A stretch of 64,000 bases of DNA, from positions 124,001 through 188,000 of the forward strand of contig AJFK01000202.1 of NCBI GenBank assembly GCA_000467715.1, written 5' to 3'. Below the pieces are notes generated by a model, which saw only the letters and a program-made list of their open reading frames with translations, ran no database searches and was not told where the DNA came from. The DNA comes from Hysterium pulicare CBS 123377 (Eukaryota; Ascomycota; Dothideomycetes; Hysteriales; Hysteriaceae). How positions within the stretch are numbered: position 1 is the first letter of the stretch; each line of letters begins with the position of its first letter. Made by a program: the position numbers and the translations under genes. Shown here one piece after another: positions 5,790 through 22,045 of this stretch.

Positions 5790-6206
5790 TCAAGGATCAG
5801 TATCGTCCGCCTCTTCGGCCACACTGATAATCGCTTCTCGCAACGACTGAATTGCATCGAACACAAGGTCGTTGCCTTCCTTGCCCAGTGCCCTTTGATA
5901 GTACACCACTAATTTCGCTACAGCGCTCACGAAATCGCGTCTCACGTCTTCCTCAACCTCAGCCAGAAGTTCGTATCCTTCCGGAATGATGAACGGATCT
6001 ATGTCCTTCTCGTCGAGTTCCTTCCATACCTGAGCAAAGGTCACATTAGCCCTGTCTTCTCCATAGTGCTGAGTCACGAAGCTTTTTATCTTATCCACTA
6101 CGGAGTTCTGCTTTCCGGCGATTTCGGACTTGTAAAAGCGATTGATATCGGAGATACGAAGGAACAGGGTCATCATTGGTGAGTCCGGGGCGTTTGATTC
6201 ATCCAT
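5790..6206 (-). CDS. Array family member 1, small helical protein of unknown function
   Basis: Intronless, 138 residues, first Met at 6206. No signal peptide or membrane span is visible. The C-terminal third holds the family mark AVAKLVVYYQRALG at about residues 95-108, preceded by EDVRRDF and followed by an amphipathic helix with SLREAI and an acidic tail. The same arrangement recurs in at least nine further minus-strand genes up to 22 kb, which is the only basis for calling it a family. It looks intact. The function is unknown; the composition suggests a soluble helical bundle. Confidence 0.6.
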   Translation of the reverse strand: MDESNAPDSPMMTLFLRISDINRFYKSEIAGKQNSVVDKIKSFVTQHYGEDRANVTFAQVWKELDEKDIDPFIIPEGYELLAEVEEDVRRDFVSAVAKLVVYYQRALGKEGNDLVFDAIQSLREAIISVAEEADDTDP

Positions 6207-6598
6207 TTCGATTGATCAATAATTATTCGTGTAGTGGTCGAGTTGAGGGTGATTGAAGGTTGGTAATATTCTATTGAAGAGGGAAGACATAGTTGTATAT
6301 ATGATATGATCCAGTGTTTGTCGGTCTTCATTGCCGTATTGAACAGATTGCTCACTAGTATAAAGAAACAGAAAAAGCTACCAGTCATCCTGGGCAGATG
6401 TTTTGCTTCTCCAAGTCCCAAACCACGAGCAATCAGAATCACGAAACCTTATGCCAGTTTGCTTTAAACTGTCACCAGAGACATTGGGGCGCGGGCATAC
6501 TGGAAACCGGGATTCTGAACTCTTCCTTTTGACCCTCTCATCCGCTTTCCGAGGCTCCCAGAAAATGCTAGAACTATCCGAAGTCTAACATATCCGTA

Positions 6599-7086
6599 TC
6601 AGCTATCCAGTTCTCTCAGCTCGAAATCATCAAGGCTGATAAAGTCCTCCTTTGCCACACTCCTTATTGCCTGCTTCAACTCCTCCCTTGCTTCGGACAC
6701 AAGCTTCTTGTCATCCTTTCCCAATGCGACTGGATAGTATACCAATAACTTCGCCGCATCGCGCAACATATGTTGACGGATATCCTGACCCATCTTAGTC
6801 ATAAAACGTGTTGCATCTGGTTGCTCCAATCGATCTCTGCCTTTTTAGGGCGATCAACGCTGAAATCTTCCAGCGTGTCCTTATTTTTCAAGTCGAGATG
6901 TCGACCTACGAAACTCCGCACATCAGCCGTTACGGCCAGATGCCAACTGGTTAGGTCTTTTGACACGGCACTGGCTCTTTTGAGTGCCGCAAGCGTCACC
7001 ACCACTTGTGGAAGTTTTTTGACGGGCTCGCGAATCGATATAGGCGTCTTTCTACCGGCATTTCTTATTCTCTTACGAATGCTGCT
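6599..7086 (-). pseudogene. Array family member 2, disrupted copy
   Basis: The C-terminal part (frame ending at 6599) reads QDIRQHMLRDAAKLLVYYPVALG and ELKQAIRSVAKE. This is the closest match to member 1 in the window. The N-terminal part lies in a different frame from about 7086 to 6820 (VVTLAALKRASAV, then TADVRSFVG). No ATG is present before the upstream stop at 7087. The switch occurs near 6820-6840. A candidate donor (GTAGGT) exists, but none of the acceptors tried joins the frames in phase. I read it as a decayed paralog; a short unusual intron remains possible. Confidence 0.5.
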
Positions 7087-7315
7087 TTATGGAGTTACAA
7101 GAAGGCAAAAAAGGCCCGGTACTTTATATGTCAAGATCAAGAAGTGACTTTAATCTCTACGAAGCTGAAGCAGATGGTTCACGAGCATACAGCACATGAT
7201 AAAGCGAGTAAACTTACTCAAACATCCTGTTCCCACTTTCGATCACCTATCTCGCAATCACGCGGTCCAAATTTCCGGGAGATTCAGGCTGCCGCATCTT
7301 CTGACAAAGCTACTA

Positions 7316-7453
7316 TCATACCCACCTGACCACTCGCATGCAAAGCCAAGATCTTTCAGAGTATCGATACAATTCCTCCAAGGTAGCTTCCAGCTCTTGT
7401 CGTATATCGTTTCGCAGCTTATCCCGGAACCGCTTTCCGCGCTTGTCACCTCT
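7316..7453 (-). pseudogene. Array family relic 3, fragment only
   Basis: A short minus-strand stretch reads RFRDKLRNDIRQELEATLEE followed by LYRYSE and two stops. It matches the region just before and within the family mark of members 1 and 2 (EDVRRDFVSAVAKLVVYYQ; QDIRQHMLRDAAKLLVYYP). There is no start codon and no C-terminal helix. It is probably the remains of another array copy, though the match is short. Confidence 0.3.
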
Positions 7454-7582
7454 TCATATGCATCCTCGTGTAAGATGGAAAAGCTTTATGTAGGATGCTG
7501 TGTTGACCATTGCTGAAGCGGAACCCTCGAGCATTTTCGATAGGTCGCTACTCGGAAGATTTTTCGTTTCTCGGATGCCTTC

Positions 7583-7987
7583 CTAGTCAGCGTTTCCCCC
7601 CTCGAGCTCCAGCTGATGATTGACCTCATCACTCAGCGCCTCTATTGCCTCATCCTCCAATTTCCATCCTTCTTTGACACCTTCAGCACAAAGTTTTTGG
7701 TAGCATATTGTTAGCCTTGCCGCCTCCCTCAGACAAAGCTTTGCGATGCCGGCCTGCATCTTACGAGCAGAAGCTTCCGTTTGGTTCCGACCAGGACTAG
7801 GTTCCATGGCCCGTAACTTATCTTGGATACTTCTAACTTCTTGTACTTTGATACACATTGTATCGGTTGCATCGGCGAGATCTTTGAGAGAAGATGTGGA
7901 TGCGGTGGAGGCTGGAGTTGATTTGGACATGCTCTCAATCAGATATTTCAGCTTGGCATAAGGATTGGGGTTCACTTGAAGATGCAA
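7583..7987 (-). CDS. Array family member 4, small helical protein of unknown function
   Basis: Intronless, 134 residues from the first ATG. A second in-frame Met at about 7930 (MSKSTPAST) would give 115 residues and removes a segment unlike the other members, so the start is open. A Ser/Thr-rich N-terminal stretch is followed by a helix with DTMCIKVQEV. The family mark AARLTICYQKL sits at about residues 89-99 (long form). The last part is a helix with DEAIEALSDEV and a short acidic end. No targeting signal is seen. Confidence 0.5.
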   Translation of the reverse strand: MHLQVNPNPYAKLKYLIESMSKSTPASTASTSSLKDLADATDTMCIKVQEVRSIQDKLRAMEPSPGRNQTEASARKMQAGIAKLCLREAARLTICYQKLCAEGVKEGWKLEDEAIEALSDEVNHQLELEGGNAD

Positions 7988-8309
7988 GAGGTCTGTCTAT
8001 CAGTGAAGCCAACGGATCGGTTCCTCTATAAGTACCTACAGGGAAGAGAAGCAATCGATCCCAAAACTCAGACCCATCTTAGGTCATGCGACTCGATCAT
8101 TCACTGATTACCCTTTAAGTACATCACCCTTCTCTTACCTGACGCAAGCCTCGATGTAGATATCTGTTATGCAGATTCTGGGAAAGCTACATTCTTGGAG
8201 CAGATATCGCTATCCTCACACATCTCCTACCATTTTATATCTCCGTCCTCGGTATATCCAGAAGCAAATTGCCGTTCCCGACCACAACATCTCAACACCA
8301 TATTACTTC

Positions 8310-8723
8310 TCAAGCACGATCAATATCACCAGCCGATCCACCAACTTCTGGCGGGTTTATAACAGCCCTCATCTCTCGCAACAACTCTATCACCGGATCT
8401 TCACGTACCCCAAAGAGTTCCTCGTAGACTATCACAATCCTTGCCGCTGCGCCTAAGAGAATGGTTTTCAGGTCATTATCCCTAGCAAATTGAGCTATCC
8501 AAAACTCTGTTTCTCTGCTCTTATAGTACTTGATGCTCTGTGCCATGCCCATAAGCTCTTAGGTTCCATTTACAAGCTTTTGGATTCCGTCTTTCTTTGC
8601 ATTGTGGACACTCAGTAGACGTTTGTCCAACTCACTGTAAGGTGCTCGGATTGGATCGGCGATTTGAGCTACCCAGTGGAAGATCTGATTGGAAGAAAGC
8701 GGTGCTCTAATCGGATGGGTCAT
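8310..8723 (-). CDS. Array family member 5, with an in-frame stop or a 36-nt intron
   Basis: The frame opens at MTHPIRAP (8723) and runs to 8574, where TAA follows KLVNG and T. It then resumes in the same frame with SIKYYKSRETEFWI, the family mark AAARIVIVYEELFG, and a tail with LLREMRAVI. The stop lies inside a stretch that begins GTAAAT and ends GCACAG, exactly 36 nt, so removing it keeps the frame and yields 125 residues. That is shorter than any other intron here (about 48 nt or more), so a genuine stop with translation from MAQSIKYYK (8546, 78 residues) is the alternative. The first 40 codons overlap a 60-bp tandem duplication. Confidence 0.45.
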
Positions 8724-8759
8724 TTCGGTTGTCTAGTGGAAGATCTGTTTCGGCGAAAT
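8640..8759. repeat. 60-bp tandem duplication at the start of array member 5
   Basis: Two adjacent 60-bp units, 8640-8699 and 8700-8759. Both begin GGTGCTC and both contain AGTGGAAGATCTG at the same offset; they differ at scattered positions. On the minus strand the duplication encodes the repeated words PIRAP and NQIFHW or its variant, so the duplication created part of the present N-terminus of member 5. Confidence 0.75.
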
Positions 8760-8967
8760 CGATGTCCTAGGAGCGTGTTATTCTATATGTCAAGTCCAGG
8801 TTTGCTTCAAGTGGTCAAGAGATGAGAAACACGAACTGCTCCGAGATGAAAGTGCATAGCGGATCACATGGCGAATCGTGATTCCTAAAATTTGCGAAGA
8901 GCAATACTGATCAAATTAGCTTTCCATTACCTAAATCAATTCCGACGTCTCTCCCTAAGGGGCGCCG

Positions 8968-9297
8968 TTACTCATCACCTTCAGACTGGCGAATCATAGT
9001 ACGCTGCAAGGCCCTCACTGCCCTATCCCAATCATAACCAGTCATCTCTTGATAGCCTCGCATAATCTTCGCCGCCTCCTCCACATAGGGAACTGAAAGT
9101 ACTTGTGCCCCTCTAGTTTCCCAAGGTTGTTCTCCTTTGATATCTGGGTGTTTCTTTAGGAAATCTCGCATCTTTTCTATGATGCTGCCAAGTTCTAGTG
9201 CTGATTCACCGTCACACTTCCCCCTCGTATTCTGACTGGCGGTGCAAAAGTCATCTACGATCTTGTCGAAATCGCGTTCAGCTACCGTACGACCCAT
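8968..9297 (-). CDS. Array family member 6, small helical protein of unknown function
   Basis: Intronless, 109 residues from ATG at 9297. It pairs best with member 7: both have GESALELGSIIEKMRDFL or SKTALELGTTMKKIRDII, then the mark AAKIMRGYQEMTG (residues 75-87) against AAKIVIAYQSMVG. This shared layout over the whole length shows that 6 and 7 are recent relatives and fixes the start of both. No signal peptide or membrane span is seen. The function is unknown. Confidence 0.6.
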   Translation of the reverse strand: MGRTVAERDFDKIVDDFCTASQNTRGKCDGESALELGSIIEKMRDFLKKHPDIKGEQPWETRGAQVLSVPYVEEAAKIMRGYQEMTGYDWDRAVRALQRTMIRQSEGDE

Positions 9298-9635
9298 ATG
9301 GAGTATTGAAGTTAGTGACGAAGTAGCTTGGTGAATATGGAATGGAGTGCATTGAATTGGTACAATGGAGATTTATAGGGCATGGTTCTGAATCTGTGCT
9401 TCCAGTGAATGTTCCATCGAAGGCTGATTGTACCCATTCAGCAGGGAGGTCAGATCACGCGATACTACTCAGCTGCCTCAAGCCGTAAATGACTCCGCAT
9501 AAAGATGGCGTAGTAAGATAACATACCGAGTTAATTCCTTAGATGCGACGTATTGGAAAACATCTCAGAAACAAACACTCTACCCTCCCTCATCATTCAT
9601 CTAACCAGGTGCTCCTTAGTGGAAATGCTAGAATC

Positions 9636-9974
9636 CTATTTGGAACTCCAGCTGGCAGCAGCCTTCCTCAGCTCCATCTCAAACTTCCCAAACACCGCAT
9701 CTTGACCGAAACCGACCATCGACTGATATGCAATCACAATCTTTGCTGCCTCTTCAATGAAGCCAGAGGCATGGAATTTCGCCGTATCGTCGAACCTGTC
9801 ATTTTGCAGTGCGGGGTTCTGCTCAATGATATCTCGTATTTTTTTCATAGTAGTGCCGAGCTCAAGCGCGGTTTTCGAGTCGAACTTCTCATTTGACTTC
9901 GAGTTGCTGGCAATGGTGTCAAAATCCTTCTGGAGCTTCGTTAACTCAGTCCCTGTATCAAATTTTGACTTCAT
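9636..9974 (-). CDS. Array family member 7, small helical protein of unknown function
   Basis: Intronless, 112 residues if started at MKSKFDTG (9974). The open frame continues upstream to an ATG at 10118, but alignment with member 6 starts at the inner Met, and the upstream part looks like leader sequence. The N-terminal half is a lysine-rich helix. ALELGTTMKKIRDII and the mark AAKIVIAYQSMVG follow, then a helix ending RKAAASWSSK. It is adjacent and parallel to member 6, consistent with tandem duplication. Confidence 0.55.
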   Translation of the reverse strand: MKSKFDTGTELTKLQKDFDTIASNSKSNEKFDSKTALELGTTMKKIRDIIEQNPALQNDRFDDTAKFHASGFIEEAAKIVIAYQSMVGFGQDAVFGKFEMELRKAAASWSSK

Positions 9975-10771
9975 TTTTTTGTAATAGCTTTGTAAAATGA
10001 ATGAGGTTTGAGTTGAGCGATCTGGAAACATCAAACGGTCATAATGGAGTACTTGTAGGGCATTGTTCAGGTTTGCTGCTTCAGAACGCCGTGGAAGAGA
10101 AAACGATTGTTCGCTCATTCAATCTCCATAGAAACGTGTGACATGTTCCATGTGCCTCATGAGCAAGCAACGACTCAGAAACTTCAGGTCATGTGTAGCA
10201 CCCTCAGCTACAAAACATAGCCAACGTTAGGCTAAGCTTTGGTTAAGCTCATGCCAAGAGCATGGCTGCATGGGTGCTAATTAAAGGCCGTAGTACAAGG
10301 GAATGGTAGCGGTGCCGTTACCTCGTGGAATTGAGAGGGAGAAAGGCGAAAACGGGGTTTTGGAATGACGTAGCAGCGAGCATCGTCCAAAATCGACTTC
10401 GCTCAACCTTCTCAAACTCTACAGCGTCATCCGGACGCTAAGCAGTGATTTGATGCCGATTCACGAATCAAAAGTCTGCCGTTAACAAATGTTATAGAAA
10501 ATCAAGGTCGTCCACTGCCATCGTCATACTTTTATGCCTGCGGAGTCTTCTCCGAAAAGGTCTAGCCCGGACATATGCAATCGACGTCAGACACTAGTCA
10601 TTTGTGTCTTGGAACATCAAACTAAATGTATATATAACTTGATCTTGGCTACCTCTACTCAATAAGTTTGATATTTCGAGACACATTCACCAAGCTGATT
10701 TCGATTCAAAACCGCTGTTAATCTTTCGTAGAGCTCACTTCCACACGTTCAACACCAGAGAGCATCAAGTC
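9975..10771. other. Intergenic, promoter side of member 7 and of the PSD-like gene
   Basis: No further gene is recognised. The two genes are divergent here, so both promoters must lie in this stretch. A TATA-like ATGTATATATAACT lies near 10626-10639, about 135 bp before the PSD-like start. Confidence 0.4.
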
Positions 10772-12166
10772 ATGGGAGCACCTCACCAAGAAAAGACAGA
10801 TGGGGTTCCGGATGAGCACCGCATGCATCGGTATACACCATCCTGAGCCATCGAATTGGCATACATGCTTATCTCTTACAGGCCGGGACAATGGCTCCCA
10901 GCCGATCATCGCGTCCACAAAGACTGGCTGAATAATATCATCAAAGAGGTCGACAAGAACCCCAAAGACCTGCATCCCGTGCTCCAAGAGTTCAAAGAAT
11001 TGATCGAATCCAACACACGCATCTATCTCCTCGTAAACTCCATGTTTGAGCAAGTGCCCTCCAAGAAACCCTATTCCCAAGACCCAGCCGGCCACAAGCA
11101 AGTCCGGGACTACGAGCACATGCTGCAGCTGCTCAACCACATTCTCACCACATCCCCCTCGTGGAACGATAAAGGTTATTCCATAGGCATGGTCGGCACG
11201 CCCCTAAATGCTGTTCTCGACTGGCCGATGGGCACATCCAGTGGCTTCGCCTTCTTCCTCGACCCCGAAGTCAATGCCATGCTGAAAAAAGTCTTGAACG
11301 CTTGGGGCGAGTTCCTCCAATCACCTGCATCAGCCTATGTCCTCGGCTCAGATTCAATCGGCTGGTTCAGTCCCCACGGCATCGAGGATTTGTCAGCTAC
11401 CGCCAATATCGGCCAAACATCGCACAAATTCGAAGATATGTTCATCTGCGACCCCTCCGCTGAACACCACGGCTTCAAGACTTGGGACGACTTCTTCACG
11501 CGCCACATCCACGAGAACATCCGTCCAGTCGCTGCGCCAGACAATGATAACATCATCGCAAACGCATGCGAGTCTCGCACCTACAACGTTGCCCGCAACG
11601 TCTCCGGCCGTGATCGCTTCTGGATCAAAGGACAACCTTACTCGGTCATTGACATGCTAGCGCAAGACCCGCTGTACACTCACTTCATCGGTGGGACTAT
11701 TTACCAGGCCTTCCTTTCAGCACTGAGCTACCACCGCTGGCACGCACCCGTGAGCGGCAAGATCGTGAAGGCTTACGTTAAGGAGGGTACTTACTTCTCC
11801 GAGCCGTTGTTCGAGGGCTTAGGCGATCCGGCCGTGCATGAGATTGCTCAAGCTGGCGAAAGTAACGGACAAGGCTATCTAACAGCCACGGCTACACGTG
11901 CAGTCATCTTCATCGAGGCGGATAGTAAAGACATCGGCTTGATGGCGTTCCTGGGGGTTGGCATGACAGAGGTGAGCACGTGCGATATCACCGTTAAAGA
12001 GGGCCAGCGGGTCAAGAAAGGAGACCAGATTGGTATGTTCCACTACGGGGGTAGCACGCACTGCTTGTTATTTAGGAAGGGGGTGGAATTGGATGGGTTT
12101 CCGGAGGCCGGAAGAGAGCACAATGTGCCTGTACGGAGCCAGTTGGCGGTTGTGAAGAGCAACTAA
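10772..12166 (+). CDS. Phosphatidylserine decarboxylase-like pyruvoyl enzyme of the PsiD (aromatic amino acid decarboxylase) type
   Basis: Two exons, 10772-10830 and 10882-12166, give 447 residues. The N-terminal part matches the extra domain of PSD-like proteins, with FKELIESNTRIYLLVNSMFE. The catalytic part has YHRWHAPVSGKIVK, GMTEVSTCDITVKEGQ and GMFHYGGST. The serine of GGST (about residue 411) should be the self-cleavage site that forms the pyruvoyl group, leaving an alpha chain of about 37 residues. Length and motifs are closest to Psilocybe PsiD, an L-tryptophan decarboxylase, rather than to mitochondrial or vacuolar PS decarboxylases. There is no mitochondrial presequence. The substrate cannot be told from sequence. 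It is the only plus-strand gene within the first half of the small-protein array. Confidence 0.88.
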
Positions 12167-12360
12167 AATGTGGAGTTACTATGAGAAGAGTAAGCAGAGT
12201 ACATGCGATGGATACGGGATTGGCAAAATGATTGAGAGTCACAAGAATTGAGAAGGTCATATTGGCGGAGGCTACAGAATCAGGTTCCCATCCCACGTCC
12301 CTTTCAGACATTTAGATCTAGACTATGACTAATCAATGATCTCACTTCACCGGGAACTAT

Positions 12361-12760
12361 ATGACGGAGGCACCTTTAACTCCCTCATGGACTCTCAGTG
12401 TCTTCAATTTCATTCTCCCGTTCAATAACCACCCCACACTCTCAACGCGTAAGGCTTCCATCGCCTTGTCGTTCAACTTCTCAGTCCCCCACAGAGCATT
12501 TGATACGAAGTTATCATGTCCGCAAGAATTATTGAAACACTTTTCTCAAACTCTCCATTCTTCTACTCGAAAAGCTTGCTCTTCGACATCTGCGACGCCT
12601 CGATATTCAACATGCCCCAGGGCCCAGTCCGAGATCTTCTTCATCACGCTTCTGATTTCGTGAACTTACTTAATCAGCTCTCTCGTACTTGTTGTGTAGC
12701 TGTCCAAATTCAATTTGATAATCGGCTTGATCGGGCATTCTCGGAATCGGGTAAGTGAGC
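12361..12760 (-). pseudogene. Array family relic 8
   Basis: Minus-strand pieces in two frames recall the family. An opening MPDQADYQIEFGQLHNKYE lies near 12740. Further on come FEKSVSIILADMITSYQMLCGG and, after a one-base shift, EKLNDKAMEALRVE. The stretch ILADMITSYQMLCGG corresponds to the mark AAKIVIAYQSMVG of member 7. Stops between the pieces and the shift make it a pseudogene. Short plus-strand frames across the same region show no recognisable family. Confidence 0.4.
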
Positions 12761-13490
12761 TTTGCCAAGGTGGTCTGCAAATCTTTACGTGATAAGTACT
12801 CATGATTACAGACTGACGGTTTGCTTCTGTGGACTTGTTTCATGCTTTAATGATCCGATCACACGGATCGAGTCATGGACTGTCTCTAAAACAACTGGTT
12901 ATATGCCGACAGTGTAAATCCCGCATTTTCGGGGCCTCGCCCTCTTCGGCCTCTTCATTCAGAATGAGGTTTCGCTTTGCCTTAAATTCAGCTTAAGACT
13001 GACCTATTCACTTGCTTCTCTTCGGTTCTGTCACTCGGGCGTCCCGTTATAATGTAGACTATAAGATCTAACACACGTAGAATCATTGCAGAACGTTGAC
13101 GTTGGAAGGAAAGCGCTCTTTCCCGTCAACCGGATCGTTATTAACATCCTCTATATCTCCTCCGCATCATCCGCATCATCCGCATCTGCTAAAGCTAGCA
13201 GTTTCATCGCGGATGGTTTGATAAGCGCAATATTGTCTCGACTTATAGAACAACGTCGTCTTCTGCATCAATGTGTGGCTCCAAAGAGTCTCATGACATC
13301 GAGCAATTCCCCTTTATTGTTCATTGTCAAATAATCCCATACCTAAAGCTCAGTTTTACCGCAATCATTTCCTCTCTCTCCTTTCTACGAATCCTCGTTC
13401 TTGGTTATAGGGACAAGAGCCCCGCAGAGGAGCCTGGAGAGAAGACCAAGACCCGTAGAGGAGACCATCCCTCAGTTCGTTTTCCGGTTT
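12761..13490. other. Intergenic, with a 9-bp microsatellite
   Basis: No gene is recognised. Three near copies of CCGCATCAT lie at about 13162-13188. Short open frames on the plus strand look like chance. Confidence 0.4.
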
Positions 13491-13835
13491 CTACTCGTTC
13501 TGCCGAATTATGGCTAATATTGCCTGCCACAAAACCTCCAGCAGCTCATCACTTAGCGCCCTGGCCTCCGCAAAGGACTTTCCACCAAGTACCTGGTAAT
13601 TCACTAAGTCCTCCGCCGCCCAATTCAGCAGATCTTTACGAAAGTCTTGCTTTAGCCGCCCGTATACTTCCATCGTATTCCATTGAGGGTTCTGTTGTGC
13701 CGTCGCTTTTGCTTCCTTAGCAAGATTCGCCAAAAGAAGGTTGATCTTTTTTGAGTTCTTCACCCTCTCCTGGACTGTCTGCTCAAACTCTTCAAACATG
13801 GCACTAAACGCCTTTGAGCATTGGGGTTTAGTCAT
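13491..13835 (-). CDS. Array family member 9, small helical protein of unknown function
   Basis: Intronless, 114 residues if started at MTKPQCSKAF (13835). A longer frame to 13955 exists, but its extra residues resemble nothing in the other members. A central Lys-rich helix with NLAKEAKATAQQ is followed by LKQDFRKDLLNWAAEDLVNY and QVLGG, the family mark with one residue changed in spacing. A C-terminal helix ends LWQAILAIIRQNE. No targeting signal is seen. Confidence 0.5.
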   Translation of the reverse strand: MTKPQCSKAFSAMFEEFEQTVQERVKNSKKINLLLANLAKEAKATAQQNPQWNTMEVYGRLKQDFRKDLLNWAAEDLVNYQVLGGKSFAEARALSDELLEVLWQAILAIIRQNE

Positions 13836-14174
13836 AGTCTTGAATAAGAGGTTTTCTGAAGTCTTCGATACAAGAAGTAGATGAGTGATGATCTTTAATA
13901 TGGCGTATCCAGGAGTTTGTGTCGAATGGTCTGCTGAGTGCTTTGAGTAACACACTGATCATGTGGGTAATGCTATGGTCCTCTCCGAAGCAGAACCATC
14001 ACGAATGCCTTCGCAAGGTTTCTACCTTCAGAACCGCTGTTTGTTTAGAATTTATCCTGCAGGTTGCTATTGAACAACTGTCATCAGACAAGCAGTCGTA
14101 TTCACTACCCCCTGACCGGCAAAGCATTTACCTTCATCAGGAACAATCTCGGCAGCATATTCATCAACTAACCC

Positions 14175-14504
14175 TTAAGCCTGAAACTGCCGGCGCATCA
14201 GCTCAAACGCGGTCACAACCTCGATGCACTGCTCATTCCTACTGTCCATCCCTAACAGTTCCTGACAATCTAGCAATAACAGCATCGCCTGGGATAACAC
14301 TTTGTCCACGAACTCCCGAGATAACCCATGTATAAGCTGCTCTTCTGCCACCCTAGTCTGTAATCCAGGGCTCTGTGCCCAGAATTCAACCATTTTGTCG
14401 TGGATGCGAGTGCTCTCTTTGATCATATCAGCCATCTTCCTCATCAATTCGTTCAATAGAGTGGACATCTTTTCCAAGGTCTGCTGGGGAGAGGACTGCG
14501 CCAT
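14175..14504 (-). CDS. Array family member 10, small helical protein of unknown function
   Basis: Intronless, 109 residues starting MAQSSPQQTLEKM. Helical throughout: NELMRKMADMIKE, then KMVEFWAQSP (compare ETEFWIAQF of member 5), then the mark QAMLLLLDCQELLG, in which the usual Tyr is Cys. The tail FELMRRQFQA is short. The divergence of the mark shows how loose the family is. Membership rests on position, strand, length and the same order of elements. Confidence 0.45.
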   Translation of the reverse strand: MAQSSPQQTLEKMSTLLNELMRKMADMIKESTRIHDKMVEFWAQSPGLQTRVAEEQLIHGLSREFVDKVLSQAMLLLLDCQELLGMDSRNEQCIEVVTAFELMRRQFQA

Positions 14505-15198
14505 TTTGGTAGGCTTTTGAAGTGTGGCGAAGTGGAAAATGTACTGGAGATGACTGGATTTTATGCGAGCTGCGATTGCTTGAGCACATGAAGTTTGCTT
14601 AAGACTTGATCCGACCTTTTACTGTCAGCTGGGTTTTCAAAATCTAGTTATTTAAATTTGAGAAATTAAGTTGGTCACTTGGATACTCTCCCGTTCAGCT
14701 GACCGACCCAATCTAACGACAAATATCCTGTGTCCCGTCGCCAGTCCCAGCAGAAGCATCCCAAAAGTTGACGAGATAAACGAGTGCCGCTATGAAGAAG
14801 ACTCACTTGAGCAAGCTGAGAACAGCCAACGCACCCCCGATAGGAATATAACATGAGCTTCACGAAAACACTCAATCTGCACTCGAAAGTGGAGGTCCAA
14901 CCCCCACTAGTAAAAGCCAGGGGTCTACAACCAATGTAGATCTGGATAGTAGTTTTCGGTATGAACCTGAACAATTTATTATGAGTTGCTCAAATCATCG
15001 TTCTGGGCTTTCCTCGCGGCATCAGCGCTTTCGCTGAGTTCCAACCAAAAGCTAAGCAAGGTGCACAAAGTGGCGGACACGGGAATCGTCGGGGTTAGTA
15101 GGGCAGGGAGTGAGCTAAAATAACGTATATGAGCCAGCTTCCACGCGTGGTGTTGTGAATAGCATCAGTGCTTTTGTGCCTACATAAGTAATGTAAGG
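14505..15198. other. Intergenic, nothing recognised
   Basis: Contains the upstream region of array member 10 and the 3' side of the zinc-finger gene. No conserved protein signal was seen on either strand. Confidence 0.4.
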
Positions 15199-16479
15199 TC
15201 AAACTTCGGTGTGCTTCGCCGCATGCTTTTCAATGAAACCCCACTCATACTCCCTGAAGTCTTTAGTAATTCCCTCAAAAGCATCGTTGGGTATGAAGAA
15301 AGTAGAGTCGTCATCGAGTTCTTGCTGTCGATTCTCTGGCACATCACCGAATGAGGATAACGTTTCGAACGATAAGTCTGTGCTTCTGCCAGCCAGGCTT
15401 GTGATGGGGCTGCTAAAAGTCGCATCATCGACATCCTCCGTCCATGGCAAGCAGCACAGAGCTAAAACAAGAAGGTGATTTACTATGTGGTTCCCGAGGC
15501 GACCAGATGTTTCAGTCCCGTCGCAGAGAGGACACGATGGAAATATTGACTCAATTTGATAAGAACTTGTCTCCGCTGGAGAGGGCTCGTTATGTTGCTT
15601 CATATGAAATTCGAGGTCTTCAGGATTGGCAAAGTCCTGTGGCGGATGGGAGTCCGCTGGGCAACGCCATCGTAAGTTGTGTTCGTCACGCATATGTGTA
15701 ATCCAGTCTTCCTTTTGGCTGTAGAGCTGGTTCGGCCGAGGACATTCTATGAGCAGACAAACATACGCATCGAGGTCATTTCTGACATGCTCGCTAGAAG
15801 AACTCAGTCTTTGAATCCGGCATGATAGATGTGATCATTCTTACATCCAATTCTTGCGGTGTCTGGCTTGCTTGCTGGATAGTATACGGTAGCAGTACGG
15901 ACAAACTGCGTCCTCGCCTCTTGGTGCAGGGGGATATTCGATTCGTTCATCCAGGGCGACAGAGTCCCAGTCCGCTGTCCGTAATTCAGGGGGACCGTAA
16001 GCGGACGTGGCGACCATAGAGGCCATTCTGGACGTAGAGATATCTCTGGTGGCGGTTGAAGCATTTCGAAACGATGTTGGTACTGCCAGAGCGACATCTC
16101 TGGTAGTCGCTACTGGCCTTGCGGCTTGTTGATTTGGTCTGGCCGATTTCATGGGGCTTGCCGATGAGCTCTTCATCTCCTTCTGTTTCCTAGACTGCTG
16201 AGACGCACAATCTAGGAAGCATTTCCGACGAAGCAACATCGTCGAGGCCAAGCGTTCGCGGATGACTTCATTCAAGCCCGGGAATTTTCTTCGGATGAGT
16301 TCAGCTGCGTAGTAGTCCTTGAAGTTTCCCAAGTCACCGTCGTCCTCGAAAGTGGGGTTGTGCTCGCCAGCATCCTTGGGCTTACGGCTCTTTGTGCTTG
16401 CTTTATGGAAGATGTTTGAGAGCCGATGAAAGGAGCTGTCGAAGTTTGCCTTTTCCTTGAGTGTCGCCTTTAGTTTCAT
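15199..16479 (-). CDS. Fungal C2H2-type zinc-finger protein of unknown function
   Basis: Two exons, 16479-15845 and 15793-15199 (51-nt GT-AG intron), give 409 residues. The N-terminal part is basic (FKDYYAAELIRRKFPGL) and followed by a Ser-rich linker. A run of Cys/His modules follows. The first is CPYCYRILSSKQARHRKNW with EHVRNDLDAYVC; the second has IECPRPNQLYSQKEDW with HMRDEH; the third has WRCPADSH with EFHMKQH; the last is CPLCDGTETSGRLGNHIVNH. This module set, including EYPPAPRGEDAVCPYC, is common in large filamentous-fungal families of unknown function. The splice restores the first finger, which the raw frame truncates. It is divergent from the CorA-like gene about 250 bp away. Confidence 0.85.
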
Positions 16480-16727
16480 CTTGGTGTTTAACTGTGGTGT
16501 CTGTTAACGGCTCGTCACTTGAACATCGTTTTGTGATGTTCAAGCGTGTCCGTGGCGTTAGTGGCGGTCCGTGTGCTTTGCCGTGTTCGCATCTTCTATG
16601 ATAAGCAGGGTTTGCAAGGCTGAATAATGTACTATGCGCTTTTTTGCGGTTCCAGAAGAAATTTACGGTCGGATGTAAAAAGGTGGTATAATCCCTATAC
16701 CAGCCCATTTGATTCCAATATATCAGC

Positions 16728-18623
16728 TTGAACGCTGAGGCGTGCGACAACATGCTTACTGCGAGTCGAAATCTTCACCAACAAGCCCAATGTTCAACTC
16801 GGCCGCACCTTGTCTCGTCCGTACATCGAGGAAAACCACTCGATGAGATCAATACACAAATTCTCTTCGGCGTCGGACGTGATGAATATCTTGAATCCAT
16901 AAAATACCTCCCTCCCCGCACACAACTTCCGCGTCTCTACGATGCCATCGAGGTAACACATCACGGCGCAAAGGTCTGTATTCGTAGCGGCAATGTAGTT
17001 AGCGACAAAAGGTGTACTGATGTTTGATAGGACGCAGAAAATGTATGCAGCACATTACGAATCCCAGAAGCAGAGCTGGCTCATTGGCTTGACGAGGTCC
17101 GTTAAGTTTCATGTTATCGATAATGCTGCGTAGCTCCTGATCTAATATACAAAGGTATCGTTCATGGAATCTCATAGCAAAGATGATCTATTAACAAGAT
17201 CTCGATTCATGTAAGTCAGACCTTTGAATTAACGTTACCGAATCTCACGCTGACAAACTTCAGTCTCGGCCCTGCTCGCTCTTCCAGGTACTTCTACGCA
17301 TCCAAGAAATTCCCAGGTCTTGACTGCTTTCCAAGCAATGCCTTGCCGTTTTCCAAGATCTCGTTTATCGATATAATGCATAAGCTCAACCTGCCTGCGG
17401 CAACTCCTTGGCTTCTCTCAATTGACTCGACACATTTCCAGAAGTATGGCAATGAAGCGAACTGGCTCGGTCGGTTACCCCTATTCGCTTCCGTTCGATG
17501 ACTCGCCACTGAAAGTTGTAACAGGCTTCACGATGCGTCTGTCCTCCTACGGTATCCTTGAAATTGACCTGTCCGCCTCGATATCATATCAACCTAGCAA
17601 CGGGACGGTCAACGCATTCCTCCATGGATGCTCAAGCGACCAACAAGCACATGTTAGTGCTCAACTGCAGGGTCTCTCGGCTCTGACGGGACATCCGCTT
17701 CTGTTACCCGTTTGTCTCGTTCAGATGAAGTTGGAACTCATGCAGGAAGAAGAGGGGAAGTTGTGGAATCAGTTAATCCAAGCTGAGACACTAAGCGGGC
17801 AGACCGGTGCACCCGCTGTCCAGAGCCCTTCCCAGGCCGCAAGGAACGAACAAGAAGCGAGAAATGCTGGGGCGGACTTTGGTATCATCACACGCGACGT
17901 CTTGGGAGTTATACAGCGCACGACATCCGCCGAAAGCCATGCTGGGGCACTACTGCTCTCGATCGAAGAAATACGGAAAGGTATAGAGGCAGTGAAAGAT
18001 GCAACGAAAGGGGACAGGGGAGAGTACATCGGCAAGGCTGGAGCGATGCTTTCTGAAAAGTTAGATCTTGTGACTCAAACAACCCGTGTGACCTTGGGCT
18101 TAATCCAATTTATTGAAAAGCGTGCTCAAGCGCAGCAATCAGCCGTAAGTCTTCCATGTACCCCGCGTGACCAGGTAGGGTATAAGTATTTGTAAGACCG
18201 CGACTCACCAGAAAAGATCTATAATTACATTGCACAGCGGGATGCTCGAGTCCAGCGAGATTTGGCGAGATCCTCTGGCCAGGTTGCGCTGGCTTCGAAA
18301 CGGGACAGCTCCGCTATGAAGGCAATCGCGGTGCTGACTATGATATTTCTCCCTGGAACTTACATTGCAGTATGTGTATTCAAAGTCAATGTAGAAGAGC
18401 TGTGACTAATAACCATGTCTAGACCTTTTTTGCTATGCCAATCATGGATTTTACAGTCGACTCCCGTCTGCCGTCCCTGAGAGATACGTTTTGGCTATAC
18501 TGGGTTGTTGCTTTACCGGTTACAGCGACTGTGTTAGTCGTATACGCCACATTCCAGGTCTACGTAGATCAGAAACACCGGAAAGAAGACAACTTGCTGA
18601 ATACGGGTGCGGTACTGCCGTAG
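16728..18623 (+). CDS. CorA-like two-span membrane protein (fungal family)
   Basis: Seven exons give 501 residues: 16728-16952, 17031-17096, 17155-17210, 17264-17469, 17525-18144, 18238-18369 and 18423-18623, all GT-AG and in phase. A later Met at 16752 could also be the start. The N-terminal two thirds is soluble, with PWLLSIDSTHFQKYG and a coiled-coil region (EIRKGIEAVKDATKG). The C-terminus has two hydrophobic spans, VLTMIFLPGTYIATFFAMP and FWLYWVVALPVTATVLVVYA. SKRDSSAMKAIAVLTMIFLP is the usual signature of fungal CorA-like proteins. The bacterial GMN selectivity motif is not kept, so Mg transport should not be assumed. The intron at 17470-17524 was chosen because it removes a frame change and is 55 nt long. 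Confidence 0.85.
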
Positions 18624-18953
18624 GTACCAAGTATCAGCAGCGGGCATGGTCCTGCATTCGGCTCGCAACGTCATTATAGCGCTTGAACAAGGCGCTATAG
18701 ACAAAAGCCAACTGAAATCGTATCATCTAGCAAGGTGAATGAGATGTAGGTAGGTAGACATAATGATGGATTGTTGTGTTATTGCGTGGAGACCATCTAG
18801 GTGATGGCTGAGATGACATATAGGTACTAGTGTAGCAGATGATTTATTTAAGGGCATCTAATTTCCCACCCTTCCACAACGTCTTCCAACCAAATGCTCA
18901 CCTTCCACGCGATAACCGTGTAGCTATTTCCCGCTCTTCTTCCTCCATTCGCT
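18624..18953. other. Intergenic, nothing recognised
   Basis: Converging 3' ends of the CorA-like gene and array member 11. It also contains the altered C-terminal coding remains of member 11 (about 18909-18960). Confidence 0.4.
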
Positions 18954-19358
18954 TCATCTCCTCACGTACTGCTTCTGCCGCCTGTGTCGGAATGGCAAGT
19001 TCTGAATAGCTGATTCTTTCTTCATAAGAACCTTCTGAAAGGCTATCATCATGTTTGCAGCTGGACCACGCAGTTTATCATGCACATCTTTCTGTACTTC
19101 ATGTATGAATTGTTCACACTCTTTAATTGAAGGCTTTGTGCCCTTCCCATTGAAAATACTCATAGGGGAGTGCTTGAATTTGAAGTCTTGAAGCTTCTCC
19201 AGGATCTTGTGGGTGTCCTCTGAGGGATCCTTTATTTGAAGGGCGTGATGGAGCTTGTCTTCGATCTCTTGTAGCTTTTGTAACCATGGTGGTGGGGTCG
19301 GGTACATATCTCGTGGCTCAGACGCATTGGACGCTGCCAAATTGGAGATCGACGACAT
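18954..19358 (-). CDS. Array family member 11, C-terminus altered by a frame change
   Basis: 134 residues, MSSISNLAASN. The middle has HKILEKLQDFKFKHSP, then VQKDVHDKLRGPAANMMIAF and QKVLMKKES, matching VRQSIQEELISKAVDLMIRF and QDALMKTED of member 12. After that point the frame reads a basic unrelated tail and stops. Another frame carries on with AAEAVREEMKRMEEEERE and ends at about 18909, which fits the helix AVMETVRKEIGRK of member 12. A one-step frame change near 19010 therefore replaced the ancestral end. The protein may still be made with the new tail. Confidence 0.5.
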   Translation of the reverse strand: MSSISNLAASNASEPRDMYPTPPPWLQKLQEIEDKLHHALQIKDPSEDTHKILEKLQDFKFKHSPMSIFNGKGTKPSIKECEQFIHEVQKDVHDKLRGPAANMMIAFQKVLMKKESAIQNLPFRHRRQKQYVRR

Positions 19359-19687
19359 TGTAGGAATTCGTTATTAAGACCTAATTCAAGATAAGCTCTT
19401 TGTAAGTATGAATTTCTAAAACTAAGGCATCCTGGGATCTTTTGTATCCATTATTTGGTTGGGATGCTAGATTCACGTGGACATATCACATTATGATGCA
19501 AGCTGAGAATGACGATTGACCACCTCAACATGCATCACGTGGGTCATGTACTTCATGCATCCTCGCATGTTACTTTTAAATGTATGACTGAAGTCAGCTG
19601 GATGCCCCTTCAACTATCCTATCAACTCAAGCCGTTCTGGCATTTCCAGCTTCCATCTCAAACATCCGAGGAATCTTCATTATCCTT

Positions 19688-20062
19688 TCACATCAACTCC
19701 AATGCAGCTCTGGCAATTGGACCAAGTCTCTGATTGTCCCCTTTCCGCCCAATCTCTTTACGAACAGTCTCCATGACCGCTTGCAGTACGTCTCCATCCT
19801 CCGTCTTCATAAGAGCATCCTGAAAGCGAATCATCAAATCTACTGCTTTGCTTATCAACTCCTCTTGAATACTCTGTCGCACGTTATTGATAGTGTCGGT
19901 CGCAATTTCCAGGTCAGCACCTTTCAGCACCTTTTGGGAGAGCTCCTTTAGTAAGTCGATCCTGGTACTAATGTCTTGCTGTTGTTTCGTCAGCTCCGTA
20001 GATACCAGTTCGAGAGCTTTGATCAGGTCTGAGAGCTTCTGCGTGCCTAACGGTTCGGCCAT
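19688..20062 (-). CDS. Array family member 12, small helical protein of unknown function
   Basis: Intronless, 124 residues, MAEPLGTQKLSDL. The pattern of three to four helices is clear: KALELVSTELTKQQQDI (coiled coil), LLKELSQKVLKGADLEI, the mark region with KAVDLMIRFQDALM, and AVMETVRKEIGRK. It ends in a less polar stretch ARAALELM. Nearest relative in the window is member 11. It looks intact. No signal peptide is present. Confidence 0.55.
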   Translation of the reverse strand: MAEPLGTQKLSDLIKALELVSTELTKQQQDISTRIDLLKELSQKVLKGADLEIATDTINNVRQSIQEELISKAVDLMIRFQDALMKTEDGDVLQAVMETVRKEIGRKGDNQRLGPIARAALELM

Positions 20063-20620
20063 TGTGGTTACTAGATTACTTGACTTGTAATATGCAAATG
20101 GAAGATCCTGTGTCCTGAGTAGAAACCCAAAGCATCATTTTAGACAACGGAGAATACTTATACAACAATTTCAAATATTGGCAAACCGCACAAGTCAGAT
20201 AATGATCGCTGATTGTGAATCTTATGGAAACTGTTTGTACTCTCACGTGTAGACTGAAAAAATTCCGACAGCCAGATCTTCTGGCTTGGAACTTTCTCGA
20301 AAGCATCTTAGTCGCCCCTCGAAGTTGACATCAGAGCAACTGAGCTTGCTTCAGATACTGTAGGCTCCATGACCTAAGCAGCACATCTTTTACGCTTGAC
20401 ATGGCGAGCATGACCAATTTGTTACTTGTAACTCTTTCCGCACTGATTGCAAAGCATTGGTACATCCATGCACAGTCACATGTCCCGAATGCCGCATCTG
20501 GCACTTCGCGAGCAATGAGATCGTAGTCTTCGGAGGTGTCTGCCCCTAGCATAGTCTTGACTACTAGCCTATAAAGCCGATTTAGACTCGGTACAAGGTA
20601 CTAAAGTAAAGCTGCTGTCC

Positions 20621-21043
20621 TTAAGCATGCTCGGAACTTAGCTGATGAGCGCTCCCTAACCCGTCATGATTATGGATAGTATATCCATTCAACGGCCCGT
20701 ATCCAGCATTCTCTAGACGTATCTCGACCCTCCTCATTCTCCTCTCTATTGCATCAATTTCTTTACTGAGGTCTGTAATCGCGGACTGTATCTGTTGCTT
20801 GCTCTCTCTGTACTCGCCCTTCAGGTGCGCCAATTGCAGTTCGAGATCGATATGTTTCGGAGGATACCAAGGCCCCAAAATCGTAGTACCGACAAAAAGC
20901 GGGCCAGTAAACCACCAATGTAGGTCTCCTAGTCCTAGGGCGTGATGGAAGCTGGCTTTGCGAAAGAACTCGCGAATGCCTAGGGAAACCGTTTAGAGCG
21001 GTTCCGAATCCTTTAGAAAGCTTAAAAGCATACCGGTTTTCAT
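20621..21043 (-). CDS. Small protein with one membrane segment and a coiled coil, unknown
   Basis: Two exons, 21043-21034 and 20979-20621 (54-nt intron with GTATGC and CTAG ends), give 122 residues. The first exon codes only MKT and one base. The spliced protein reads FRKASFHHALGLGDLHWWF, then a short hydrophobic patch (TGPLFVGTTILGPWY), then a strongly charged helix with ESKQQIQSAITDLSKEI and DAIERRMRRVEIRLENAG typical of a coiled coil. It lacks the family mark of the array around it. The function is unknown. Confidence 0.5.
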
Positions 21044-21475
21044 GATTGTGATGGTGGATGTGGTTGAGCCAAAGCCGCTGAAAAGGAGTCGTAATTGAAG
21101 ATGCTTGGTAGCGACCGAAGCTTGGCCCAGCACTGAACACCACGTCTCTTGGTTCCCTTACACCACTATTGATAATTATGATAAGCTGATTGTGTCCATG
21201 CTTTAACGAAACATATCCATTGACAGTGTTGAATCGAAGAAAAAAATCTGTCCAATAACAGTATTCAAATTTCCAGAGATCTACAAAGTAGAATGGGTTC
21301 ACAATCAACAACTCATATGAGCCTTGCGGGTATACCTTGGAAATGACATGAGTTACTCAAACGCCACCAGCCTCCGAACTCAGTCCTCCATACCTTCCTA
21401 CTGTTTGGTGCCCTCAAGCGAAGCATCTCCAAAGACAGCACACATCTCATCCATGGTCTTATCCTTAAACTCACT

Positions 21476-22045
21476 TCAATCCTCACCCAGCAGTTCCTGA
21501 TACAAGGCCATGACGCTTGCTGCTCTCTTCACAAGGTCCCGTCGAACGTCCCTTTGTAGGCCAGAAACCAGTCGATCCTCTGTGTCCTCTTCCGCCTTCT
21601 GACTCTGGTTTTCATAACCATAGATCTTAATCAACAGGCCACCGAGGACAAGCTGCTGATCTTCTAGAGTGGCAAGTGCTTTCGTACCCGTCCTTGAAAA
21701 CATTTCAAGGCGGCTGGAAGTAGATGCGGCAGAAGGGTTGGGCGGGATAGGGTCTTGCGTTGGATAGGCGTAATGGTGTGTTGTCTGAAGAGCGCCGTAG
21801 ACTATTTCGTCAATAAGATTCATAGCGACATGATGAACGACTTGGATAGATGGGGGTCGAGGTGGCTCTTCGTCAGAACCTGAATCATCATCTTTTTGTT
21901 CTTCTTCTGTTGAGTCTGGAGCCTGTCGATCAGACCCGGCTGCGCGCCAGACAGCTTCGCGGACATAGTCTTTGATGAGTTTGATGGCGTTCTTAGCCAG
22001 GCCCTCAAGCTGGGGCTCAAGCGATACATTTGTTGGTGGCGGCAT
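21476..22045 (-). CDS. Array family member 13, long divergent form
   Basis: 189 residues if started at MPPPTNVSLEPQL (22045); an upstream in-frame ATG at 22168 would add 41. It is longer than the others, with an acidic insert (EEEQKDDDSGSDEEPPRPP) and a second helical block. The end reads LQRDVRRDLVKRAASVMALY and QELLGED, then stop. The family mark is therefore the very C-terminus, and the final helix seen in other members is missing. It is the right-most member and borders the conserved ilv3 gene. Confidence 0.5.
   Translation of the reverse strand: MPPPTNVSLEPQLEGLAKNAIKLIKDYVREAVWRAAGSDRQAPDSTEEEQKDDDSGSDEEPPRPPSIQVVHHVAMNLIDEIVYGALQTTHHYAYPTQDPIPPNPSAASTSSRLEMFSRTGTKALATLEDQQLVLGGLLIKIYGYENQSQKAEEDTEDRLVSGLQRDVRRDLVKRAASVMALYQELLGED

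What the first reader, a model, noticed from the sequence alone, without database searches (positions are those of the whole stretch)
5790..22045. One-strand array of at least ten small helical paralogs plus three relics, family unrecognised
Seen: thirteen minus-strand coding units or fragments (5790, 6599, 7316, 7583, 8310, 8968, 9636, 12361, 13491, 14175, 18954, 19688, 21476) share a layout. A variable helical N-terminus leads to an Arg/Lys/Asp helix, then the mark AA-hhh-x-[YF]-Q-x-h-h-[GM], and in most a last amphipathic helix with an L-R/K-x-A-I pattern. Most are intronless, 105-140 residues long, without signal peptide or membrane span. Pairs 1/2, 6/7 and 11/12 are closer to each other than to the rest. 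Inference: an expanding, fast-changing family in one lineage, of the kind often tied to conflict (self/non-self recognition, antagonism, host interaction). I know no named family with this mark.
Basis: partly seen in the sequence, partly recalled or inferred. Interest (0 to 1): 0.88.

Follow-up and report, generated by a model that had tools for sequence, protein, structure and literature searches.

The report
Tandem array of small helical genes
A fungal chromosome carries a row of about eleven old, strongly diverged copies of one small helical protein gene, some of them short or decayed; the family matches nothing convincing in the libraries searched, and its job is not known.

Summary
The observation largely holds. 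With each member and its nearest sister left out, 11 of 11 return above the first non-member. Shuffled training sets gave no hit below 0.05 in 30 of 30 runs. The mark, with spacing corrected to AA-x(5)-[YF]Q, occurs in 6 of 1605 ORFs, all six members. Seven units have all three segments in one frame; four (m02, m05, m11, m13) are short or broken. Of two further relics, m08 is weakly supported and m03 is not. The 11 all lie on the minus strand. AlphaFold2 gives moderate-confidence all-helical models. No Pfam, NCBIfam, PADLOC, PHROG, PDB or fold match is convincing, but no fungal proteome could be searched. My best reading is a birth-and-death family of cytosolic helical modules, most likely used in intracellular recognition or conflict. 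That function is inferred: there is no partner gene, population or expression evidence. Drift of a dispensable family fits almost as well.

The parts
5790..6206 (-). member 1, whole, 138 aa
   Evidence: model
6599..6799 (-). member 2, core and last helix; a possible upstream part (6802-7086) is in another frame, so short or broken
   Evidence: core 0 of 1000 resampled; upstream part 131 of 1000; the upstream ORF came at E 0.07 in one run
   Evidence: 292 of 1000 as good
7583..7930 (-). member 4, whole, 115 aa
8310..8552 (-). member 5, core plus last helix, 80 aa; no first long helix found, stop codon in frame upstream of its ATG
   Evidence: core 0 of 1000; upstream 340 of 1000
8968..9297 (-). 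member 6, whole, 109 aa; sister of member 7
9636..9974 (-). member 7, whole, 112 aa from the ATG that fits the family; the ORF's first ATG at 10118 would give 160 aa
   Evidence: 5 of 1000 as good
13491..13835 (-). member 9, whole, 114 aa
14175..14504 (-). member 10, whole, 109 aa
18954..19358 (-). member 11; first helix and core in one frame, last helix apparently in another frame
   Evidence: core 0 of 1000; C-terminal part 17 of 1000
19688..20062 (-). member 12, whole, 124 aa
   Evidence: model
21476..22045 (-). member 13, 189 aa with a longer, unlike N-terminus; stops right after the mark, so no last helix
   Evidence: core 0 of 1000; C-terminal trace 72 of 1000

Best explanation
An old tandem array of one gene family on one strand, grown by local duplication and decaying copy by copy. 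Each whole copy makes a cytosolic protein of 109-138 residues. It is predicted to be all helix: two long helices and one or more shorter ones, the conserved AA, YQ and G lying in or at the end of the second long helix. I infer that they pack as a bundle whose core is kept while exposed positions may change, and that copies act as interchangeable binding modules. The likeliest use is intracellular recognition or conflict: small, variable helical proteins watched by, or interfering with, a fungal cell-death or immune receptor or a foreign element. Shown: the family, its decay, two tandem pairs, strong divergence. Predicted: helices. Inferred: packing, binding role, conflict.
For: Family. Codon pattern. 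Most conserved columns include A73, A74, Y80, Q81, G85, L96 of the m12 numbering. Helical models. Adjacent pairs 6/7 and 1/2. Short or broken copies. N-terminal 25-residue hydropathy negative in 10 of 11 (m02 is a fragment). Analogy: a passage of PMC10197012 says fungal receptor-driven cell death answers small endogenous proteins such as SEC-9 or the 208-residue HET-C, and that fungal NLRs show a birth-and-death mode.
Against: No NACHT, HET or gasdermin match in the 19 ORFs scanned. No strain data, no expression data, no positive-selection test (two of three pairs saturated). Models have pTM of only 0.42 and 0.49. Conservation and hydrophobicity are not correlated over helices two and three (Spearman 0.15, p 0.31), so 'kept core, free surface' is not demonstrated. 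Decay is just as expected of dispensable genes.
Confidence: 0.33

Rival explanations
1. Ordinary dispensable lineage-specific family: a weakly constrained helical gene duplicated in tandem and is drifting and dying, without any arms race.
For: Four of 11 clear copies are short or broken. Divergence is large, end branches of median 1.38. No receptor-type domain in 19 ORFs scanned.
Against: Seven copies stay open despite very large divergence, and in 9 of 11 units codon usage points to the claimed frame even with stops ignored, which suggests continued selection on protein.
Confidence: 0.32
2. Membrane-active helical bundle of the HeLo / MLKL / RPW8 / plant CC kind: the copies are cell-death executors without their receptors.
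For: The plant protein RPP13-like 4 (6j5t) recurs in two profile searches within its first 91 residues, E 1.1 and 0.71. One of 10 members matches Pfam RPW8 at 0.08, another a Bacillus haemolysin family at 0.011.
Against: These E-values are near chance for the number of searches and come beside designed helical proteins and F-BAR domains. Foldseek finds no PDB match at E<=0.001 for either model. N-termini are mostly hydrophilic.
Confidence: 0.1
3. Effectors that act in another organism after leaving the cell by an unconventional route.
For: Clustered, small, strongly diverged genes without known domains.
Against: No hydrophobic N-terminus in 10 of 11 units and only a mean of +0.24 in m12; few cysteines (0-4).
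Confidence: 0.1
4. Artefact: unrelated generic amphipathic helices that look alike.
For: Helical proteins give spurious matches, as the PDB lists show.
Against: Leave-out retrieval 11 of 11; 30 of 30 shuffled training sets without a hit below 0.05, though 5 of 30 had one hit below 0.6; corrected mark found only in members; adjacent pairs supported by the tree.
Confidence: 0.02

Closest known systems
Fungal allorecognition small targets (HET-C, SEC-9) answered by NLRs
   Same: small intracellular fungal proteins, variable; HET-C has a GLTP fold (passage), which is helical (recalled)
   Different: HET-C is a single polymorphic gene of a known fold; here a tandem array, fold unmatched, no receptor domain found in the ORFs scanned
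HeLo / MLKL / RPW8 / CC four-helix domains
   Same: short helical bundles (recalled); faint echo of plant RPP13-like 4
   Different: no significant sequence or fold match; mostly hydrophilic N-termini
Birth-and-death gene families in fungi, for example class II hydrophobins (PMC2253510, title and start of abstract seen in the listing)
   Same: gain and loss within a gene family
   Different: hydrophobins carry eight conserved cysteines (same listing); here 0-4 cysteines and no sequence match

Membership tests
One homologous family in this window | a profile of some members retrieves the others above background | tested here: met
   11 of 11; fails for unit 3 and is weak for unit 8
One homologous family in this window | members share a predicted fold | tested here: inconclusive
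   two of 11 modelled, similar helix order, pTM 0.42 and 0.49; not superposed; both used the same 11 sequences
Any Pfam, NCBIfam, PADLOC or PHROG family | good profile match, shared by members | tested here: not met
   10 of 11 members scanned (m02 left out). No Pfam match reaches its cut-off. No family listed, 57 matches more than one of 10. NCBIfam best E 0.01 (cut-offs shown for one member only). Two PHROG single hits are below 0.001 (6.4e-5, 3.9e-4)
HeLo / MLKL / RPW8 / CC | significant sequence or fold match | tested here: not met
   best E 0.08 (RPW8) and 0.71 (6j5t); no fold match at 0.001
HeLo / MLKL / RPW8 / CC | membrane binding and cell killing | not testable with these tools
   needs expression
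Fungal allorecognition gene | polymorphic alleles under balancing selection, incompatibility on fusion | not testable with these tools
   no genome held for the window, no strains
Fungal allorecognition gene | linked receptor or executor gene (NLR, HET, gasdermin) | tested here: inconclusive
   none in 19 ORFs; intron-split genes were not modelled and other ORFs were not scanned
Secreted effector | N-terminal signal peptide | tested here: not met
   hydropathy only; no dedicated predictor was run

The most novel reading that the evidence does not exclude
The array is a recognition locus built from a helical family not yet described: a set of diversified cytosolic modules that set the identity of the strain or block foreign elements through one shared receptor.
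Probability: 0.15. Interest if true: 0.75.

Novelty: new member of a known kind. Interest (0 to 1): 0.4.

Why it matters
If the conflict reading is right, it adds a new protein family to fungal self/non-self or antiviral systems. If not, it is still a clean case of a fungal family visible only by profile, with whole copies and relics side by side, useful for tracing gene birth and death.

Tried and rejected
The mark as written gave no hit and a looser form with the same spacing two, one of them a member; the spacing was corrected at the end. The family alignment could not be used for a collection scan; single members gave no confirmed relative: m07, m01, m12, m06, m09, m10, m13 in viral contigs (7 scans), m07 and m01 in genome contigs, m07 in plasmids. 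These are prokaryote, plasmid and virus collections, so the misses say little about fungi. PHROG and PADLOC single-member hits (best 6.4e-5 to a DNA methyltransferase family, next 3.9e-4) were set aside because only one of 10 members hit each. The designed pentatricopeptide hits (best 1.2e-6, no single stretch passing, absent) were set aside as repeats summing weak matches. A shared promoter word was sought in 10 upstream regions (m02 left out): the commonest were TTTCCA in 6 of 10 (background 0.13) and AGCAAAC in 4 of 10 (0.02), not tested further. A possible plus-strand relic at 16921-17280 beats 1000 of 1000 resampled copies of itself but has a window-wide E of only 0.35 and lies, by eye, where a CorA-like gene begins; not accepted. 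Codon test: the first version penalised stops and gave 11 of 11; the fairer one gave 9 of 11, and five ORFs of other frames over members scored below zero. Paper searches (15, 15, 12, 1, 3 and 8 papers listed) showed none that I could tie to this family; I saw listings only, except passages of PMC9815663 and PMC10197012.

Full report
The window looks fungal by its genes (a phosphatidylserine decarboxylase with a PSDC domain, a PI3/PI4-kinase domain, a dihydroxy-acid dehydratase, NOC3), and no genome is held for it. The species is not identified.

The family. Pairwise BLAST of 10 members (m02 left out) shows one strong pair, m06/m07 (8.5e-12 in a fixed search space), and otherwise only matches of 0.001 and weaker, so relatedness must be judged by profile. 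Two of the seven (m04 0.18, m10 0.51) would not stand alone, since shuffled ORFs reached 0.11 in 20 sets. With each member and its sister left out of the profile, all 11 rank above the first non-member in a search of 2484 ORFs, E 1.6e-6 to 0.077. In the m13 run the first 'non-member' (0.07) is 6802-7086, the possible upstream part of m02. Thirty profiles from shuffled training sets gave no hit below 0.05; 5 of 30 gave one hit below 0.6, three of these being members.

The mark. AA-x(5)-[YF]Q matches 6 of 1605 ORFs, all of them members (m04, m06, m07, m09, m11, m13). The other five carry variants at one or two of these positions.

Genes, not noise. With stops penalised the claimed frame scores best of six in 11 of 11; with stops ignored, 9 of 11, m09 and m10 being narrowly beaten by another frame. 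In the five pairs tabled, identity is lowest at the third and highest at the second codon position, as under selection on protein, though aligning by protein favours that.

Decay. Seven units have all segments in one frame: m01, m04, m06, m07, m09, m10, m12. In m02 a possible first part lies upstream in another frame; m05 has no first helix; in m11 the last helix seems to lie in another frame; m13 stops right after the mark. Support for those lost parts, by a profile of the seven whole members against first-order resampled DNA, is poor to fair: m02 upstream 131, m05 upstream 340, m11 C-terminus 17, m13 C-terminus 72 of 1000 as good. 'Broken' is fairly likely for m11 and possible for m02; 'short' is safer for m05 and m13. 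Assembly errors cannot be excluded. Unit 8 is weak (5 of 1000) and unit 3 fails (292 of 1000).

Evolution. The tree of 11 short rows is mostly unresolved: 6 of 8 inner branches are open. It supports m06/m07 (98/95) and m01/m02 (93/91), both adjacent in the array, while m11/m12 is not resolved. dN is 0.40 and dS 0.90 for m01/m02 over 47 codons; the other two pairs are saturated in dS. This means weak constraint or old age; positive selection is not shown.

Anatomy. AlphaFold2 with the 11 paralogues gives m12 helices 7-46, 51-84, 91-107, 115-123 (pLDDT 72.5, pTM 0.42) and m01 helices 10-48, 57-66, 75-106, 112-135 (pLDDT 76.0, pTM 0.49). The mark lies in the second long helix and ends at its tip. 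Conserved columns include 73, 74, 80, 81, 85 and 96 of the m12 numbering (mostly A, A, Y, Q, G, L). Coordinates were not seen, so packing is inferred. Foldseek found nothing at E<=0.001 in PDB for either model or in BFVD for the m01 model.

Known families. No Pfam match reaches its cut-off, and no family listed from the four libraries is shared by two of the 10 members scanned. Profile searches of PDB list designed bundles, F-BAR domains and, with both profiles, the plant protein RPP13-like 4 at E 1.1 and 0.71. I keep the last as a lead only.

Mechanism. I favour, at about one in three, a set of diversified helical binding modules used in recognition or conflict inside the cell; a dispensable drifting family is nearly as likely. 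The analogy is that fungal receptors respond to small endogenous proteins such as HET-C and SEC-9 (PMC10197012, passage). No receptor domain was found among 19 ORFs of the window; intron-split genes were not modelled.

Verdict. A real tandem family with decayed copies, correctly spotted by eye; the mark's spacing needed correction, one relic fails and one is weak; function open. 'Unrecognised' holds only for the libraries searched here.

Noticed in passing
8641-8760: Two head-to-tail copies of a 60-base unit, 72% alike, just upstream of member 5.
   Followed up: no
16921-17280 (+): Plus-strand stretch with stops that resembles the family core; 0 of 1000 resampled copies as good but window-wide E 0.35.
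   Followed up: partly
17446-18700 (+): Gene that looks by eye like a fungal CorA-like membrane protein, 5' part apparently broken or split by introns; its ORF 17446-18195 has no Pfam match at 0.01.
   Followed up: no
10865-12166 (+): Phosphatidylserine-decarboxylase-like gene with the PSDC domain inside the array, on the other strand; may be an accessory rather than housekeeping decarboxylase (recalled).
   Followed up: no
20640-21065 (-): Small gene between members 12 and 13, by eye with one short intron, a hydrophobic stretch and a coiled coil.
   Followed up: no
15199-16479 (-): Zinc-finger-like gene inside the array, in two ORFs (one matches Pfam zf-C2H2_4 below cut-off).
   Followed up: no
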